Below are positions 23,147 to 47,600 of a stretch of 64,000 nt of DNA, in pieces (within the stretch, counting starts at the first letter, position 1; every line of letters starts with the position of its first letter). The DNA comes from Xestospongia bergquistia. Lineage: Eukaryota; Porifera; Demospongiae; Haplosclerida; Petrosiidae. Under the pieces are notes generated by a model. The model did no database searches, had not been told where the DNA came from, and worked only from the letters and a program-made list of their open reading frames with translations. The stretch is taken from NCBI GenBank assembly GCA_963965975.1, contig OZ014423.1, forward strand, positions 372,001 to 436,000, given 5' to 3'. A program made the position numbers and the translations under genes.

Positions 23147-26691
<3,545 letters not shown>

Positions 26692-34238: not shown

Positions 34239-36501
34239 TTACACTTCATAATTTTTATCATTATCATAGTTTGTGGATTGTCTAACCATCTGTATAACAC
34301 TTGACACATTATCTATATCCTTTGCTAAATGTTGTTCTGTCAAATTTAATAATTTAAGTAGACATTTACAAGGGACATTGATAACTTCAACAGCAAATGT
34401 CAAGAGAAACTGTTGTGAACTAGGTAAGTTCAATTTGTTAATGGGGACATTATAATAGGTAGTGAGAGTTGGTATAGGACAGTATTGTTCACAGGCTCTT
34501 CCGAGTCCTGGAAGACTCAAATCTAATGGTATCCAGCGTGGGACAATATTGTTGTTAGTAATAGTTTTGACTTGATCTCCTATTAATACAAAGAGTGGGC
34601 GTTGTTTTTGTTTAGTGTTAATTTTTCTTTGTTGTCTTTTTCTCTTGGCATATACAGAAAAAATGGCATTAATTGGCAAACTCCAGTCACCTTTCTGGTT
34701 CTCTAGGTCTGGACGTGTCAACGACAAAGTTTGTGCAGTATAACTATCAAAACATTTCTGGCGCAGAAAATCCAAATAATTAGAGGTGTCATCTAGTTGG
34801 GGGATGTCCCTAGCAACCAAGAAAAGTAAAAGATGTATTAAATTTATACTTACTTTAGTGAGAGTTCTATAGAAGTTTGCAAATTATTGTATTTCTTTCT
34901 TGTCACCATGGTAACCCAATCTTCCCAAACGTAAGTGGAATTTGTCCTATCTATTTTCATCTGGTCAATATGATAAGATGATTGCTGCCTAAATTAATAA
35001 ACATCAGGAAAGATACTATTAATGTTATTACATCTCTTCTTACATTTCATAATTGTCATCTAAACGATAGATCAATTTTAATAGAATAATAAGAGCCACA
35101 GTTACTGAGAGATCTAAATAAATATTATCAGAAGAAGGTTGTTCTAGCACTGCAGTTAGAGATACTGACTGACAGAGATATAATAGACGATAGAGTGGAG
35201 TCTTTAAACTAGCTGACAAAATATCAGTAAAATCATAAAATTACGATGAGTACTACTGACATGGAAGATAGAATTTTTCAAGGAGACACTTTATAATAAT
35301 TGATTGATCCAATGGCAAAGCCGGTAGGCCAATGTTACCTTTCAACTGAACCAGCATTCTTCCCATGTCAGCAGATGTCACAGGTGACTACCAATAAATG
35401 ATACTTATAATCACATTATATAACAGTATTCTATTTGTACATTTTTATCATATATTCGGTCAATTTGATGCTTCCATAGTTTCCTGGACATAGCTTGTGG
35501 TATGTGTTGGTGCCAGCTGTAAAATGGAATATCATCTGACAATAGCATCCTATAATGAAATAAAAATCAACACACATTTAATAAAATGGATCCATTCCTT
35601 ACCTCAAAAAATCAGAAAGTAATACAAACTGTCCGGAATATAACAGACCCACATATAGGAGTCCTACCAAAACCCTCTTAGAGACATAGGCACGTTTATG
35701 GTTTACGTGGGCCACCTCTTTATACACTGCTTCAGCCATTTTAGCTTTATCCTGTGTGTACATTATCAAGGAGTCAGTCTCTTCCCATTCTTTATCTTCT
35801 TCCTCATCCTCCTCAAGTTGTCTTTTCTTGCTTGAATTCCAATACTCTAATGGCTTCATTGATCGATTATTTTGTCTCCATAACTTTATGATTTTGAAAT
35901 TACTCATACTTTGACAGAGACGATGACTAGACAGTTCCATAGTGTCAACACGGTTGAATTGCTGTAGTTGATATCGGAATACAAAATCTAGATATAGAAA
36001 CCAGACTAATTTGCATGACTCCTAGAGATAGGTATATGGATATTGTTACATGGCTGACATTTGATTACCTTGATTGCAAGGTCAAACCCCTTCTTAATGA
36101 GATGATTTATGAAGATACGATAAAGAATTTGCCAACATTCATGAAGACTTTCAGTACATTCCGCAGTCTCTATTAATGTATCTGCTTTTCTCTTCCTTCC
36201 TATAGTAAGAAATATTCAACCATCATTAACACGACTACCAAATCAGTCACATGACAAGCACATGATTTAATGTATACCCTTTTTAGTACGAATTTTTTGC
36301 TGAACAGTTGCAGCATCTGGCTCTTCTATGATCTCTTCTCGTTGATGCTGTATAAATAAGTATTATAATGTGACATTCTTTGATAGGGTGATAGTATGTA
36401 ATTAAAATCACTTGTGACTGAGTTCCACATTCCACGCAGTAATAGTGTCCATCGATATTCTCATACCCTTCGCTGCCACAGACGGGGCAAACTTCATCCA
36501 T
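34239..36501 (-). CDS. TAF1B: TAF1B, RNA polymerase I selectivity factor subunit
   Basis: TAF1B (RRN7 family) is the TFIIB-like subunit of SL1/TIF-IB for rRNA gene transcription in the nucleolus. The N-terminus is the zinc ribbon: MDEVCPVCGSEGYENIDGHY then YCVECGTQSQ, four cysteines in CxxC pairs. The start at 36501 places the first cysteine at residue 5; an in-frame Met eleven codons upstream (36534) is the alternative. Downstream is the helical linker and cyclin-fold region (ESLHECWQILYRIFINHLIK, RAYVSKRVLVGLLYVGLLY, FLRMLLSDDIPFYSWHQHIP), then a weaker C-terminal cyclin fold, ending NDKNYEV. About ten exons. It is head to head with the CCDC152-like gene. Confidence 0.9.
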
Positions 36502-36547
36502 CTTTCTTTCCAACACGTGGTCAACAAGCGGCAAATTTAAATACGGG

Positions 36548-36615
36548 AGTAAACGGAAACATTCTTAAATTTATACAGAAATGATATGGGTGAAAAACAG
36601 TAAAGTCCGTATACT
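36548..36615. promoter_or_regulatory. Inverted-repeat two-way promoter element, copy A (TAF1B/CCDC152-like)
   Basis: The left arm is AGTAAACGGA (36548-36557), the right arm TCCGTATACT (36606-36615); they are reverse complements except for one base. Arm starts are 58 bp apart. The core includes CATTCTTAAATTTATA and GAAA. It sits between the two start codons, so each gene has TCCGTATACT (or a one-base variant) reading toward it, 20 bp before the CCDC152-like ATG and 46 bp before the TAF1B ATG. Length and layout equal copy B at 40280. Confidence 0.7.
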
Positions 36616-36635
36616 ATAATCTAGCAGCAGGGAGC

Positions 36636-37614
36636 ATGGAAGCATGTTCAGAGGTGAAGACGGATTTAGACTTACTTATAGATGATTTTCAGGCATGGCA
36701 AAAGGTTACTGATTGCACGAAAATCCTAAAATTATCATGTTTTGTTCACAGATAACAGCAGACCTTTATAGCGATAACAAAGATTTAAGAACTCAACTCT
36801 ACTATCTTCAGAAGCAATGCCAACTGTATAAAGAATCAGAAAAGTTATTCACTACAAGTAACATACAGCACATTTGTATATGACCACCAAATACTGTTCA
36901 CAGATAATGCAGAATTACGTGAAACAATTGACAATCTACAGAGTATCCTTCTCAAACGATGTGATTTGGAGAGTGAAAACAGCCGACTCAAAGAACAACT
37001 TGATCTGCTACATTTAGAAATGTATCACTTAGAGGAACAACATCGTCAGCAAATGACAGAAGCAATGGAAAACCTTCAAGCTATTCAACAAGCTCATAAG
37101 AAAGATCTTATTCAAGTCCACGAATCTGTTAATTATCAAAGTAAAGATATAACAAATTTCTATTTTTATCTTACATGTTTTAAGTGAGAAAGGAGATAGA
37201 TTCATTACAGAAGACAGTTCAAGACAAAGCTGGAGAAATACAGCAACTTCAGAAACAATTAGCTGAAGTTGAAAGAGACAAACACACGGAAATAGTTAAA
37301 CTTCGTCTTGAAGTTAGTTGTTCTTGTGTCTTCCTTTTGCTGGCAATGATCTCTTTATTTATTTTGAAGTATGATGCAAAATTACTCAAATTACAAAAAC
37401 AGAACACAAGATCACAAGCACAGCCATCCACCTCCTCTATGAACAGTGATATCTTTCGAAGGGTATGTATAAGTTGAGTACAATTTAGTTCAAATCAATA
37501 TAGAAATTACAAGCAGCCAAAGCTGATTATGAAAGAGAAATTTCCAGCCTCAGAAAGAGAGTGGCTGAACTGGAAAAACAAGTTCAAACTAGCACTAAAC
37601 GCAGGAAAATGTGA
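36636..37614 (+). CDS. CCDC152: CCDC152-like coiled-coil protein
   Basis: A small, almost wholly coiled-coil protein of about 250 residues from about seven exons. It starts MEACSEVKTDLDLLIDDFQ and ends STKRRKM. Heptad-rich segments cover nearly all of it (ADLYSDNKDLRTQLYYLQKQ, LESENSRLKEQLDLLHLEMY). The order resembles vertebrate CCDC152: an N-terminal LDxLIxDF-type motif, a KHTEIVKLRLE segment leading into YDAKLLKLQ, an IFRRKLQ motif, and a basic end (RRKM here, RRRF-like there). Those short matches in order make the call reasonable, but coiled coils align easily by chance. Function is not known. No signal or membrane segment. Confidence 0.68.
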
Positions 37615-38131
37615 CATCAATTGTTTAGTACATGCAGTATCATTTATTAATTGCAATGAGTATAATATGAGGCGAGTATCATATAATAGTAAGTAATATA
37701 TTCATCCATCACTTTTAGTGATTTATGCTAAGAATATCAGTCATAAAGTAACATCATAAAAACTATTACAACTCAATAGCAATTGCTCAATAACAGTATT
37801 TACATCAGAAATTTCTATGTCATGTAGATATTTACATATAAACATAGCTACCGCCTTAATAGAAATTTAATAATCCATATAGTAAAACATGCTTTAACAA
37901 GCTCTTCCAATGATGCCTTTAACAATTTAAACTAATGACTCTGAAACTATACCTATGATATATTACTGAAGTCATTATGGACTGTATATTGCTTTCATTA
38001 ACACTGATACAAGTTCCCTTGGGAGTAGCAGGAGATGAGAGTGAACACACCGGTTACATCATATACTAATAAGCACACCTGTTGTTAATAACTGTGTGTT
38101 CAATTTATAAGAGAAAATACAACAACTAACA
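37615..38131. other. Intergenic, CCDC152-like 3' flank to membrane-protein gene
   Basis: About 517 bp, AT-rich; nothing recognisable. It must contain the CCDC152-like 3' end and the promoter of the next gene. Confidence 0.6.
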
Positions 38132-38935
38132 GTGGTAGTTTCAATGATGCCTTCACAAGAAATGGAGCTCGATTGTTACTGGCCAATTGTCCCTTATCTA
38201 AGTCTATGTACAGTCTACATCCTCTTCAATATGTGCTCATATCGTGAAAAGAGAAACTCTATTAAAAAATTTGTATTCAATTTGGCTCCACTTGTTATGC
38301 TGCTGTGCTGGATTCAAGTGTCAAAATATCGCTTGCAAGATTTTCAAGAAGAAACTTGGACCTCTTCAGAAATAAAAGAATTACAGGTCAGAGTAAAAGA
38401 GCATCGAAATGTTTTCTACATACTGCTACTCATTACAATAGCTAGGGCAGTAACACTGGTAAGAGTAACCCTCTTGATTGAGCTAGCATGGATTTGTTGT
38501 ATTGGTATGCTCATAAAGATAGAACTTAACCACTTGAAATATTTTGATGTGACCTCTTTTGTTTGGATGGTGGCTATAGTTATAACTCTGTTCACTTTAT
38601 GCATGAATACATGGATACTCGCACAGTGGCAAGAAGAGGACGAGTTGAGCGAAAGAGAAGATGGATTTCAGTACCAGACTGTGGTTTCTGGAGGTCTCAT
38701 TCTTGGAGGACTTTCAGTTATTTTGGGCCTAAATATTATTCAAGTATTGAGTGCACCTGGAAAAGACACGATATTAAATGAAGCATTTGCTTTGTTGCTT
38801 TATGCATCTACAGTACTTCATCTTGTCATGAAACATTGCTGTCCTATCTTGAAGATATGCTCTCACAACATTTGTTTTATTTTGTCTCAATCAGCATATC
38901 TCTCTTTGGTATTATTGGTTGTATGCAAAGATTAA
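38132..38935 (+). CDS. Unrecognised eight-helix membrane protein, single exon
   Basis: An uninterrupted 267-codon frame, unusual among intron-rich neighbours. I do not recognise the family. About eight hydrophobic segments can be seen: near residues 17-36, 47-63, 93-110, 111-129, 140-164, 184-208, 217-234 and 245-264. Charged loops follow the second (KYRLQDFQEETWTSSEIKEL) and the fifth helix (AQWQEEDELSEREDG). There is no signal peptide beyond the first helix and no obvious catalytic motif; a short lysine/aspartate tail (VCKD) ends it. It could be a taxon-specific transporter- or receptor-like protein, or a retrocopy that lost introns. It ends 113 bp from the convergent BCCIP stop. Confidence 0.75.
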   Translation: MVVSMMPSQEMELDCYWPIVPYLSLCTVYILFNMCSYREKRNSIKKFVFNLAPLVMLLCWIQVSKYRLQDFQEETWTSSEIKELQVRVKEHRNVFYILLLITIARAVTLVRVTLLIELAWICCIGMLIKIELNHLKYFDVTSFVWMVAIVITLFTLCMNTWILAQWQEEDELSEREDGFQYQTVVSGGLILGGLSVILGLNIIQVLSAPGKDTILNEAFALLLYASTVLHLVMKHCCPILKICSHNICFILSQSAYLSLVLLVVCKD

Positions 38936-39048
38936 GAACACATTAGTTATAATATATGCGTGTGTTGTGTAGTGATGGATTACATATATATATATATATG
39001 AGTGTTTTAACTTTCTAAAAAACAAATTTTCTGAGGTTAGATAAATTA

Positions 39049-40254
39049 TTATTGGCTAGTTCTAAACTCATCCACTAATCTTGTGATAACTTGAGAGAAA
39101 GCTTCATCAGTGAGTATAAACACTGAACGATAAGGTGTCATACTCTCGTCTTCAAATCCCCACCTTCCACTCTGAACTGTGTCACTTTCGTTACTTACAG
39201 AATAACTAAACTTGAAAATACACTCCTATATATAAATCTTATATATTGTTCTTTGACTAAATTATGCTCTACCTTTTGTAAGCATTCCATTTCGTAGAAA
39301 TCATAAACTAATTCAGCTGATCTAGAATTTTTTTGCTGTCTTACTGGTCTTTTTCTCTTCTTAGTCAGAGGTTTTGGTAAAGGAACCAAGTGAGAGCGAG
39401 TTATAAACAAATAGTGTGTGGGTGTTAGTTTACTCTGACAAGAAAATAAATTAAACACCTTAAAAATAAACACTTTACTTGTTTTTTTAGTTCTTCACTA
39501 CAATAACAAAAATACACATCAAAATAATAGTTGTATCATGTTTAACAATAACTTACATGAGACAATTTAATAAAGGAGGCCCTATATCAGCTGGAATATT
39601 TAGGAAACGTTCATGTAAAACCACACCCACAACATTATCAGTGCTAGTTAGAATTTTGTGTAACTGCTTATGAGCATCAAGTTCACTGTGTTCTTGACAT
39701 TTCAGTAACAAGTAATCAGTGAGCTGAGAGATAAACTTACGTTCTTCCTATCCAAGAGACTTTTAATTATAAAGAGAGATTATTGCCTCTCTAACCTTCA
39801 TAAGTAAAGCTGTAGTAATCCCTAGTACCTCCTCCTCCTCAGTCCCTTCATTTTTGTCATCGTTGTTGTCATCAAAGATCTATAAATAGTAACAAATCTA
39901 TAAATAATTTTGTTGACAAATTACTTTTATTACACTGCCAATATGAGATTGTTGAATGATGCATTCTGTCATATCAGAGAGATCAATAGGTGCTTTTAAG
40001 AATAACTACTGAAAAATACATGTTACTAGAACATTTTAATCTTTCAATTTAGAACCTGTCGCAACAATCTTCTTATGCCATGATAATCCTTGTCTGAGAT
40101 TGCTCTAGCATCAAAGTTAACCTGAATCTCCTGAAGAAAAATCAGCAGATTTAATATAAATTTAAAGACTTACTAAATCTGATTCCACATGGCTGCTCTC
40201 ATCACTTGAGCTTCCTGAACTTTCACTGACATCTAGTTTGGGCTTCTTGCTCAT
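39049..40254 (-). CDS. BCCIP: BCCIP/BCP1 family protein
   Basis: BCCIP binds BRCA2 and p21 in vertebrates, and its yeast relative Bcp1 serves nuclear export and as chaperone of ribosomal protein uL14. The start at 40254 gives MSKKPKLDVSESSGSSSDES, an acidic serine-rich leader with a basic cluster. The conserved core then reads VNFDARAISDKDYHGIRRLL, VLKAPIDLSDMTECIIQQ and GSVIKIFDDNNDD. Later segments are VLGITTALLMKERKFISQL, HERFLNIPADIGPPLLNCL, HYLFITRSHLVP and YDFYEMECLQKECIFKFSYS. The end is EFRTSQ. About eight exons and near the normal 300 residues. It is head to head with PIGY. Confidence 0.9.
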
Positions 40255-40279
40255 ATTGGACCACGTGGGCAAATACGAC

Positions 40280-40347
40280 AGTATACGGAATCATTCTAAA
40301 ATTTGTATAGAAAAGTGAATGAGGAAATAAAATCAACTCCGTATACT
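40280..40347. promoter_or_regulatory. Inverted-repeat two-way promoter element, copy B (BCCIP/PIGY)
   Basis: The left arm AGTATACGGA (40280-40289) and right arm TCCGTATACT (40338-40347) are perfect reverse complements, with arm starts 58 bp apart as in copy A. The core has CATTCTAAAATTTGTATAG. By eye 51 of 68 positions match copy A with no gap. It lies 25 bp before the BCCIP ATG and 47 bp before the PIGY ATG. Confidence 0.75.
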
Positions 40348-40394: not shown

Positions 40395-40662
40395 ATGGTA
40401 CCCTCAGTTGGTTATGTAATTTTAATTAGTGTATTAATGTTCACTGGTGTATGTATGTGGTGTCTATCTAGATGTTGGTCAGTCAGTGATGAGGTAAGAT
40501 GCTTATATAATCCTCAAATTTATTTATTTATTTCAAATTCATTAGGATGCCTTTGCACCTGGACAATGTTATTACGGTATGTTACTATCTCTCTCAGTAC
40601 CTCTACTAATCTATTACTTCGTACTAAACTGGTTGAGTTACAAGTTATTTAAACACAATTAA
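40395..40662 (+). CDS. PIGY: PIGY, small subunit of GPI-GlcNAc transferase
   Basis: Two exons (40395-40493 and 40546-40662) join to a 71-residue protein, the same length as human PIGY. Two hydrophobic segments are present (VGYVILISVLMFTGVCMWCL; LLSLSVPLLIYYFVLNWL) with a short lumenal loop containing DAFAPGQCYYG. It ends LSYKLFKHN, close to the family C-terminus (GxKLFRHN). PIGY binds PIGA in the ER complex that makes GlcNAc-PI, the first step of GPI anchors. Unlike the mammalian gene, no PREY/PYURF-like frame precedes it in the visible transcript, and the coding region is spliced. Poly(A) signal AATAAA at 40690-40695. Confidence 0.87.
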
Positions 40663-44621: not shown

Positions 44622-47600
44622 CCCACCTTTGCTAGTTTGTGCTATTGCCTTGTGAGCAAAGTTTCTCTCTTCTTATGGCTTCAAACACTACTCCAAAGTT
44701 TATTCACACTCCACTGCCTTCTCTTGCACTTAGCCGGAATCTCGTAGTCTAAGTGTTGTTTACACCTTGCTTGGCGAAGAATGGTAAGCTTTTCAGATGG
44801 AGAGAAGTTTGCGCAAAGTATCTTTGCTGCAAGTGGAGAGTTAGTTACTTAGCTATAGCTCTTGAGCCACTTCTTGATAACTGAAAACTCACTACAGCTC
44901 GTTCGGTATTCATAGCCATACACCGAAAGGGCTTCCATATCACTGGAGTATCCGGAGATAGTATACGGTAAATGCAATAAAAATTGTATTAATTTTAGTA
45001 CTGTTTTAGTGTAGTGTTAACTAAATTAGAACTAGACAATACATTGAATAAAAGTGGAGAATGTTATAATGCGCACAATAAAGATAAACACTTCAATGAG
45101 AAGAATCTGCACATATGCAAATAACTATTATGCACATCTTGTGTTAATAATGCCATGATGACAAATCTTTGCATAGAACTGAAGCACTTGAACTCATATA
45201 GTGTCACAGATCATTGATGACCACTTATTAAGTGTTGCAAATATAATCAACAGTAAGTGCTTCAGGAAACCTTTGAGGCAAGTATAATAGTCCAAACTTC
45301 AACAGTACTTAAACAATTAAAAAGGTTCAAAAATCATAATTAGCTTAATTGATAGGTAGTCATTCAAAGAAAGTTGTGGTTCTACTTATAGTAAGTGATT
45401 TGGTCTATTTAAGGATATAGTAATGATGTGACAACAAAAATAACTTATGTATTTTACTGTTTACTCATCCAGCCCACAGTATCAAGTTACAAGGAGCAAC
45501 ACTTATAACACACTTATCTAACTGAGCTGCAAACAGAACTCTGTTTCAACTCTTTTTGTTGTCACTGTTACTGTGTGCAGAAGACATATTGTAAAGTTGT
45601 ACATGAGGTTAGGATTAGCATTATCATATATTATTGAGGTCTATTAACTGCTCTACATATATGGACCTCATTCAAACTATCACTATTACTGAATAAATAC
45701 ATTTATACATGTATACAAAAAGAAAAGATGACTTTTACATAAGTTTGCTCAGTTGAGTTTGTGGTTATCACTTTATATTATTAATGTAAAGGAGAAGTGT
45801 AGCAAATTCATGGACCACCGATAGAACCCTTGTAATTTCTTCCTTGTAGTTACTTGCTAGGGCTGCATCTACCACAAATTGCTTCTAGGCTGACTGTATT
45901 AATCGCAGACCAGTTTACCACACCTAAGCAACTTTTAATACATCTCGCCACAAACAATTTACATGTCTAGGTCTACACAGATCCATGTACGGTTGTTGGA
46001 ATGCAGTCAAGAGGAACTACACGGGCGGTAAGTTTGTTTCAATGTACTCTTTAAGGGATGATTCTATATAAATAAACATTGATAGTACAGTGAATGATGC
46101 AGTACTACATAAAGCACAACAGCTAGACTCAGCATTAATGAAAGTCATATAAATTATTACTTCTATATAGCAACTATCACATTAATGGACTTATAATTAT
46201 GGTTGTTATTACTTGATGTCATTACTGACCACTTAGGATCTCTGTGTGATAATCAAGTTTTAGAATCAATGCTGCACTGTAAAGGCTTGTGGATTGGTCC
46301 TACAGCAATCAACAGCTGAAGGTGAAAGAGTGATGGAATCCTTTCATTAGTTAGAGCAAAGTCAACTAAACTGTCCCCTTGCACTATATCACTAAATTAT
46401 ATGTAATATTTGTCAACAATTGTGGTCCATCTGATGCTCTAGTAACAGTTAGTATAACGTTTTAGAACAAACCATTTTTTGCATTGAAACTTCAAAACCA
46501 GTCGTTTCATTTTAAACTTGATTGGCTTTACTGTCTATTAAAATGACCTTACAGTCAATGATTGTAAACTTACTAATGTATAGCTACAGTATATGCTCTT
46601 AGTATACTCTCTATGATATAATGTAATATTAATAATACATGAGCATCCAAAGATGGTTATGTATGTACACAGTGTGGTGATGTATACTATATTAGTGGCT
46701 AACATCATAGTGCAAGGGTTATTGACAGTGGTTGGTGTGTATCATCACTGCTCTAACCATTAGCGATCTAACCACAGCACCTGTGACTTATGTATTGGGA
46801 TGGGCTTTAATTCGGGGCCACCTGTCCAATGGATTGGACTCATCTCTCACTCTACCCTTCCTGTTACAGGATACCTCACCAACACCAGAACTACAACTAT
46901 TAGATTAGTTGTATTTCTGAAGTTGGTGTCTCTGGTATCACTGAATAGCTTACATTTAGTAGAAGGATGTTTATTACATAAATACTGCTAGTGTTTTTTT
47001 TAATGGTGAACAACAATAGACACCTATTTCTACATGACTTAATGAACCAACAAAACTGCATTATCAAAGCTGTATGTTAATTAATCATGAAGATATAGAG
47101 CTGCCCAGTTTTCAGATAATTTGTGTAAACTAGTATAAGTAGAGAAGCCTCTCTGATAATAACACATAAATACTCTCTAGGTCTTCTTCAAGTGGCTAGA
47201 CAATGGAGAAGTAGTAATCAAAGGACCTGGAGTGTATTTTGCACATATGCTGGAAGCTTTGTAGAGTTATTTGTAGCTACATATAAGTGCCAATTGAATG
47301 AAGCTAAAATAATGCTGTACTAAACATCATTCAATTGATTGCATCTGTAACATGCATCTGTACTGACAACATATGATTACTATAAATGTTAGCAATTGAC
47401 AGTAAACAACACTATATACATAATTAGATTTATTTCATGAATAGCTGTTGCTATGAAGTTAGCGTAATGGTTAGAGAAGACGTCCAATTCCTAGTAAAGT
47501 TTGCGGATGGTCATATAAAACAGCAGCCCTATAGTTACACGACAATATAGTTGGAGCTATGAACATTAGTTAGCCTGCTTTACAGAGTACATTATTACTG

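What the first reader, a model, noticed from the sequence alone, without database searches (positions are those of the whole stretch)
36548..40347. A 68-bp symmetrical promoter element shared by two unrelated head-to-head gene pairs
The intervals TAF1B/CCDC152-like (36548-36615) and BCCIP/PIGY (40280-40347) hold elements of identical length, each flanked by inverted arms TCCGTATACT with arm starts 58 bp apart and each arm reading toward its own gene. By eye 51 of 68 positions match without gaps, including the core words CATTCT, AAATTT and GAAA. Seen directly: arms, spacing and core. Inference: a two-way core promoter in which TCCGTATACT marks each transcription start and the core binds a shared factor, possibly coupling expression of housekeeping pairs. 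The two copies could also be a recent duplication or a small mobile promoter that landed 3.7 kb apart, because the flanks do not match.
Basis: partly seen in the sequence, partly recalled or inferred. Interest (0 to 1): 0.85.

Follow-up and report, generated by a model that had tools for sequence, protein, structure and literature searches.

The report
A recurring two-way gene promoter
The two matching stretches belong to a family of more than a hundred near-copies in this animal genome, many of them lying between two genes that point away from each other, so the stretch is probably a shared on-switch for both neighbours, of a sequence type I could not match to a known one.

Summary
In detail: 51/68 identical positions, 10-bp inverted arms with starts 58 bp apart, one of four arms imperfect. 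The two copies belong to a genome-wide family. The left half (35 places, up to 3 mismatches) matches 142 times against 0 in the reversed-pattern control. Two exact arms alone recur 39 times against 0, and 22 of 24 non-redundant ones carry the core within 5 of 19 letters, v 0.7% of shuffles. Conversely a right arm follows 66 of 67 copies picked on the left half. Wider flanks are mostly unrelated, with no target-site duplications. Coding signal points outward on both sides in 45/67 and inward on both in 3/67. A CACGTG box lies near the left arm in 25/67. Best reading: a directional, composite bidirectional core promoter of mixed housekeeping genes. That transcription starts at the arms is a weaker inference: start-codon distances are near control values. 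Copies concentrate near contig ends (54/61 clusters within 1 Mb; gene controls 34/66 and 46/76). A minority look like dispersed repeats. There were no transcription data and no second species.

The parts
36548..36615 (+). Copy 1 of the element (68 bp), between the TAF1B/RRN7-like gene and a coiled-coil gene
   Evidence: model hit 36541-36590, E 1.1e-15 (this copy is one of those the model was built from)
36548..36557 (-). Left arm of copy 1 (outward TCCGTTTACT, 1 mismatch)
36558..36588 (+). Directional conserved core of copy 1
36606..36615 (+). Right arm of copy 1 (TCCGTATACT)
36514..36519 (.). CACGTG box between the left arm and the start codon of the left gene
   Evidence: enrichment of such boxes
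36499..36501 (-). Inferred start codon of the TAF1B/RRN7-like gene, 46 bp outside the left arm
   Evidence: Pfam Zn_ribbon_RRN7 E 5.1e-10 on window:36283-36564:-
36636..36638 (+). Inferred start codon of the coiled-coil gene, 20 bp outside the right arm
40280..40347 (+).
   Evidence: model hit 40273-40319, E 2.5e-13 (this copy is one of those the model was built from)
40280..40289 (-). Left arm of copy 2 (exact)
40290..40320 (+). Directional conserved core of copy 2
40338..40347 (+). Right arm of copy 2 (exact)
40262..40267 (.). CACGTG box between the left arm and the BCCIP start codon
40252..40254 (-). Inferred start codon of BCCIP, 25 bp outside the left arm
   Evidence: Pfam BCCIP E 8.8e-14 on window:39553-39747:-
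40395..40397 (+). Inferred start codon of the right-hand gene, 47 bp outside the right arm
   Evidence: no Pfam match at E<=0.05, so the name PIGY is not confirmed here

Best explanation
The element is a composite, directional core promoter that serves two genes pointing away from each other. A conserved left half of about 40 bp (consensus ACGGAAGTATACGGAAACATTCTGAAATTTGTACAGAAATG) probably binds one long-footprint protein or a fixed assembly that keeps the site open. The two outward TCCGTATACT arms are probably initiator-like or start-proximal boxes, one per gene. A CACGTG box outside the left arm, in about a third of copies, adds a bHLH-type input. Because the arms lie mostly 57-63 bp apart, the position some 30 bp upstream of each arm falls in the same A/T-rich core, so I propose that the two directions share one assembly site and fire alternately. 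Shown: the family, the tie between arms and core, the outward coding context, the E-box enrichment. Inferred: transcription from the arms, protein binding, shared assembly site.
For: Left half 142 places v 0 control. Two exact arms 39 v 0, 16 v 1 and 28 v 0 in three overlapping searches that did not ask for the core; of 24 non-redundant matches, 19 carry the core within 3 and 22 within 5 mismatches of 19 letters, v 0.02% and 0.7% of shuffles. Conversely, a right arm lies in 66 of 67 copies picked on the left half (47 exact, 17 with 1 mismatch), spacing 57-63 bp in 45 of 66. Positions not asked for in the selection are uneven: +10, +11 and +38 at 94-97%, +25 and +28 at 51-60%, +36 without a consensus. 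Coding signal: both sides outward 45/67, mixed 19, both inward 3; single sides 109 outward, 25 inward; with a margin above 3 on both sides 13 of 15 (550 bp) and 17 of 25 (1000 bp) both outward, v 56 of 855 window points passing that margin at 1000 bp. 22 of 30 chosen outward ORFs match Pfam at E<=0.001, 16 above the curated cut-off. At least 20 open codons follow the first outward ATG in 37/66 (right) and 31/67 (left) v 29% of control points. CACGTG within 150 bp: left 25/67, right 13/66, v 0.017 per 150 bp background. Arms do not covary (both changed 1 time, 2.8 expected, pair never kept).
Against: No transcription, chromatin or binding data; no second species. First-ATG distance: median 29 bp left and 19.5 right v 30.5 for random points; within 12 bp 9/67 left and 23/66 right v 26%, so closeness of start codons to the arms is not itself evidence. 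The conserved minus-strand ATG at +12 (55/67) was part of the selecting pattern; in copies picked on arms alone it is 13 of 24; the ATG inside the right arm is 60/67 and 22 of 24. Conservation of the left half is inflated by selecting on it. The coding model is crude, trained partly on the same loci; its control points lie anywhere in the window, genes included; a fairer base rate may be the 22.3% head-to-head regions published for Amphimedon. 22 of 67 copies have a side not scored outward. Inward genes occur: an Enkurin ORF pointing at the element from 24 bp on the right in L067, a kinase ORF from about 500 bp in L014. Some copies have no evident gene pair (L003, L015/L016, L042, L078-L082). 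Spacing runs from 45 to 74 bp, against a rigid shared site. TATA is not enriched.
Confidence: 0.73

Rival explanations
1. A miniature inverted-repeat transposon or other mobile promoter that spread by insertion and now sits at gene starts; the arms are its terminal repeats.
For: 142 dispersed left-half matches; inverted arms; a sub-family in chromosome interiors shares about 110-130 bp, beyond the 68 bp (L015, L042, L078, L079); one C11 copy lies beside an ORF that looked integrase-like by eye (L077). Precedent: placozoan promoters with Mutator terminal repeats that hold a loop-anchor motif (PMC12221973, passages).
Against: No duplication at the arm edges: 61 of 66 none and 5 of 2 bp, v 61.7 none expected. 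Conservation passes the left arm (ACGGA at -5..-1, 64-75%), so the arms are not sharp ends; I did not test other boundaries. Beyond -40/+120 one close pair and four short or weak matches among 67. Insertion alone does not explain outward coding on both sides.
Confidence: 0.15
2. A binding site for a known vertebrate-type promoter factor, above all ZNF143/Staf with THAP11, in diverged form.
For: The reverse-complemented core TGTACAAATTTCAGAATGT matches a joined M4+SBS consensus at 14/19 (P 0.06 v shuffles of the consensus); 35 of 67 copies have at most 5 mismatches to it v 14.6 in shuffled copies (the copies are alike, so not independent). ZNF143 regulates nuclear-encoded mitochondrial genes, including the mitochondrial ribosome (PMC11687419, passages), and some neighbours here are of that kind. 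ETS (P 0.04) and TEAD (P 0.14) show similar partial fits.
Against: The SBS consensus alone fits the element no better than shuffles (12/18, P 0.75), M4 alone P 0.99; the CCC is missing from the core. No orthologue was looked for.
Confidence: 0.08
3. A structured RNA or cruciform whose arms must pair.
For: Perfect inverted arms in 20 of 66 copies.
Against: Arm changes are not compensated: 48 left only, 20 right only, 1 both and not matching.
Confidence: 0.02

Closest known systems
Amphimedon queenslandica bidirectional promoters (Fernandez-Valverde and Degnan 2016, PMC4773876; outline, text parts 1-2 of 6, motif methods and legends seen)
   Same: Compact animal genome with many head-to-head genes; [quoted passage not shown]
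   Different: The motifs named in the text I read (Sp1/GC-box and its reverse, E-box, Kozak/YY1, Nrf-1, EGR-2, KLF, CT patches, an A/T-rich one, four unknown) were sought at no more than 15 bp; none is described as this element. The logos are figures not held, so an 'unknown' could hold part of it. That this window is a sponge is my inference.
Drosophila Motif 1/M1BP housekeeping promoters (search listing only; details recalled)
   Same: A directional motif near the start site of many housekeeping genes, tied to a dedicated zinc-finger protein.
   Different: Different sequence; here two inverted boxes flank one long core.
ZNF143/Staf SBS with THAP11 M4 (PMC5006282 passages; PMC11687419 passages)
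   Same: Long footprint at promoters, mitochondrial and housekeeping targets; partial resemblance of the joined consensus (14/19).
   Different: SBS consensus not met.
Placozoan Mutator terminal repeats at promoter loop anchors (PMC12221973, passages)
   Same: A repeat-like sequence with inverted ends recurring at promoters.
   Different: No duplications at the arm edges and no shared transposon body around most copies.

Membership tests
Bidirectional core promoter | Lies between two genes transcribed away from each other | tested here: met
   Both sides outward 45/67, mixed 19, both inward 3, by coding signal, not annotation; not met by every copy
Bidirectional core promoter | Transcription starts in both directions within the element | not testable with these tools
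   No RNA data; the indirect ATG argument is weak
Bidirectional core promoter | Start codons unusually close outside on both sides | tested here: inconclusive
   First-ATG median 19.5 right, 29 left v 30.5 control; frames after it are longer than control (37/66 and 31/67 v 29%)
MITE / terminal-inverted-repeat transposon | Target-site duplication at the ends | tested here: not met
   61 of 66 none, 61.7 expected; arm edges only
MITE / terminal-inverted-repeat transposon | Copies share one alignable body up to sharp ends | tested here: inconclusive
   Not seen for most promoter copies; an interior sub-family shares 110-130 bp
ZNF143/Staf binding site | YWCCCRNMATSCMYYRCR consensus | tested here: not met
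   12/18 on the element consensus, P 0.75 v shuffles; copies have 4-6 mismatches, shuffles 2-7
ZNF143/Staf binding site | Bound by the orthologous protein | not tested
   No orthologue search made
G-box E-box promoters of Amphimedon | CACGTG near the start, enriched | tested here: met
   25/67 left, 13/66 right v 0.017 per 150 bp; a minority of copies
TATA promoters | TATAWAWR enriched | tested here: not met
   12 exact v 12.2 shuffled

The most novel reading that the evidence does not exclude
One lineage-specific DNA-binding protein (perhaps a long zinc-finger or a domesticated transposase) reads the 40-bp core and defines a class of housekeeping gene pairs gathered towards chromosome ends; in each pair one shared assembly site, set between two inverted initiators about 60 bp apart, fires left or right alternately, tying the expression of two unrelated genes.
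Probability: 0.18. Interest if true: 0.82.

Novelty: new variant of a known kind. Interest (0 to 1): 0.58.

Why it matters
Bidirectional promoters are common in compact animal genomes, but they are usually loose mixes of short sites (my general knowledge). A long conserved core plus two inverted boxes, recurring at more than a hundred places, would be an unusually rigid promoter grammar. It would allow a direct test of whether paired genes share one assembly site, how an early-branching animal specifies housekeeping promoters, and whether such grammar arose from repeats. The bias towards contig ends, stronger than in two gene controls, is a further open question.

Tried and rejected
Recent duplication of only the two window copies: rejected, as they are two members of a large family. 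Hairpin or cruciform: rejected by lack of covariation. Known motifs (P on the element consensus): SBS 0.75, M4 0.99, M4+SBS 0.06, ETS 0.04, TEAD 0.14; per copy, ETS at most 2 mismatches 26/67 v 8.8 shuffled, TEAD at most 1 35/67 v 21.8, NRF1 at most 4 30/67 v 19.2, YY1 at most 3 12/67 v 9.2, TATA exact 12 v 12.2, CCACGTGG exact or 1 mismatch 24/67 v 0.6. Since the copies are alike, only the E-box, which lies outside the selected block, counts as clear. Ribosome-biogenesis regulon: considered because of TAF1B, BCCIP and CACGTG; the neighbours found are mixed and no enrichment test was made; the 2008 paper on that regulon (PMC2570694, one passage) gave no lead. Other collections: one exact 23-base pattern gave 0 in genome contigs and viral contigs. 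Six strings of the element in the paper library gave 23 papers; the 20 listed look unrelated by title and abstract start, none was opened. Searches for sponge promoter motifs brought up the Amphimedon papers; in the passages I saw of PMC4432959 and PMC5429095 no such element is described. The first coding model (both outward 35/67 v 69/400) was replaced by that.
Full report
WHAT IS THERE. The window is C13:372001-436000 of an unnamed 146-Mb assembly of 21 contigs. That it is a sponge like Amphimedon is my inference from size, GC (31-37%), small introns and gene content; no call proves it. Both 68-bp stretches are as described: 51/68 identical, arm starts 58 bp apart, one arm imperfect. The next best place in the window for copy 1 scores 38/68. 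Inferred start codons lie 46 and 20 bp (copy 1) and 25 and 47 bp (copy 2) outside the arms.

A GENOME-WIDE FAMILY. The two-arm pattern with gap 44-52 finds 39 distinct copies, control 0. With 9-bp arms, gap 16-46 gives 16, control 1, 14 of the 16 with gaps of 41-46, and gap 55-85 gives 28, control 0. These sets overlap in part. The core was not asked for; in 24 non-redundant sequences it is present within 3 of 19 letters in 19 and within 5 in 22, while shuffled middles reach those levels in 0.02% and 0.7%. The left half alone (35 places, up to 3 mismatches) gives 77+65=142 places, control 0; a variant pattern gives 64+52=116, many the same, and adds loci. An exact 23-base core pattern gave 0 in the prokaryote and viral collections.

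ANATOMY. From 67 non-redundant copies (selection told in Tried and rejected) the left-half consensus is TnTACGGAAGTATACGGAAACATTCTGAAATTTGTACAGAAATGnAATGGG. About 25 of the 35 pattern positions are at least 90% conserved there, but most of these were asked for in the selection; in the 24 copies picked on arms alone the core columns +10 to +34 run from 58% to 100%, most above 75%. Positions not asked for are uneven: +10, +11 and +38 at 94-97%, +30 at 85%, +18 at 78%, +25 and +28 at 51-60%, +36 without consensus. A right arm within 2 mismatches follows in 66 of 67 (47 exact, 17 with 1); spacing 57-63 in 45 of 66, full range 45-74. A second TCCG lies within 16 bp outside the left arm in 42 of 66 copies but outside the right arm in 1, so the element has a direction. 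CACGTG is found within 150 bp left in 25/67 (17 of 26 boxes begin 18-28 bp from the arm) and right in 13/66, against 0.017 per 150 bp in the rest of the loci. In the held sequence, 2 matches to four arm variants were found away from an element, one of them in a second copy within L042; loci outside the 67 were not counted.

CONTEXT. Beyond -40/+120 the flanks of the 67 give five matching pairs: one close (L010/L031, 387 bp at 93%) and four short or weak. With a codon model trained on 72 ORFs from the window and loci, 550-bp flanks score outward on both sides in 45/67, mixed in 19 and inward on both in 3; single sides 109 outward, 25 inward. Requiring a margin above 3 on both sides leaves 15 copies, 13 both outward; at 1000 bp 17 of 25, v 56 of 855 window points (of 2000 drawn, anywhere in the window) passing the same margin. 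For comparison, 22.3% of regions between genes are head-to-head in Amphimedon (table seen). Of 30 outward ORFs that I chose for score and closeness, 22 match Pfam at E<=0.001 (16 above cut-off), among them CwfJ, TEDC1, tubulin, VAC14, TANGO2, mitochondrial S30 and S22, ribosomal L17, a lactate/malate dehydrogenase, an E2 enzyme, SacI and an MFS carrier. Of 10 high-scoring inward ORFs that I chose, 3 match, including an Enkurin ORF 24 bp from the right arm of L067 that points at the element. The neighbours are mixed; no functional enrichment was tested.

WHERE TRANSCRIPTION STARTS (inference, weak). Several copies have a plausible start codon 3-12 bp outside the right arm with a long frame (L051, L020, L013, L007, L053, L063), so a start upstream of it must lie in or before the arm; and an ATG lies between +30 and the right arm in 60/67, and in 22 of 24 copies picked on arms alone. 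Under scanning this favours starts near the right arm. On the left the matching argument is weak: the ATG at +12 (55/67) was asked for in the selection and is 13 of 24 without it, and first ATGs lie at the control distance (29 v 30.5 bp; right 19.5). Frames after first ATGs are longer than control on both sides. Arms 57-63 bp apart put the position 30 bp upstream of each arm into the same core, hence the shared-assembly-site idea, which is untested.

MOBILE ORIGIN? Arm-edge duplications are absent (61/66 none v 61.7 expected). But a sub-family in chromosome interiors shares 110-130 bp (L015, L042, L078, L079); a C3 group has wider homology (L080/L081 over 1,080 bp at 91%, L003 and L082 in pieces); a C11 region at 1.4-2.2 Mb holds many copies, some 6 kb apart, one next to an ORF that looks integrase-like. 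An old repeat origin followed by selection at promoters is not excluded.

CHROMOSOME ENDS. The 76 places with at most 2 mismatches all lie on C2-C15; collapsed to 61 clusters, 54 are within 1 Mb of a contig end, 24% expected by length. Gene controls are also end-biased: RRM 34/66, WD40 46/76 (rows retyped in part; both lists capped at 150 scored candidates). The element exceeds both (Fisher P 6e-6 and 2e-4), so gene location explains part, not all. Contig ends are taken as chromosome ends; of 6 ends read, 1 shows telomere repeats and 1 reads N.

KNOWN OR NEW. The nearest description found, Amphimedon promoters (PMC4773876, seen in part), lists short motifs including an E-box enriched in bidirectional promoters, but in the text seen nothing like this core; logos and supplements were not seen. 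The ZNF143 SBS consensus is not met, although a joined M4+SBS consensus fits partly. I file it as a new variant of a known kind, a bidirectional core promoter.

Noticed in passing
L092 (C14:1-400): Contig C14 begins with 53 CCCTAAA units in 400 bp, that is TTTAGGG-type telomere repeats rather than the usual animal TTAGGG ('usual' is recalled).
   Followed up: partly
window 23957-24349: A tandem array with a 32-bp step whose unit holds AGTATACTGA, one base from the arm; it looks unrelated to the element.
   Followed up: no
window 44947-44969: Two near-arm sequences 13 bp apart (AGTATCCGGA and AGTATACGGT) without the core.
   Followed up: no
C2-C15: RRM and WD40 matches are themselves concentrated near contig ends (34/66 and 46/76 clusters within 1 Mb, 24% expected by length).
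   Followed up: partly
L015 and L016 (C14:5024764-5031425): Two element copies sit in a large inverted repeat with arms of at least 1.84 kb at 99% identity.
   Followed up: no
C11:1412058-2221038; L076, L077: An array-like region with many two-arm copies, some 6 kb apart; in L077 an ORF that looks integrase-like follows the right arm.
   Followed up: partly
C3:7145304-8615827; L003, L080-L082: A local sub-family with a shifted left end and wider shared flanks, L080/L081 over 1,080 bp.
   Followed up: partly
loci: Several neighbours look mitochondrial (S30, S22, possibly L17 and malate dehydrogenase) or centriole-related (TEDC1, tubulin); no enrichment test was made.
   Followed up: no
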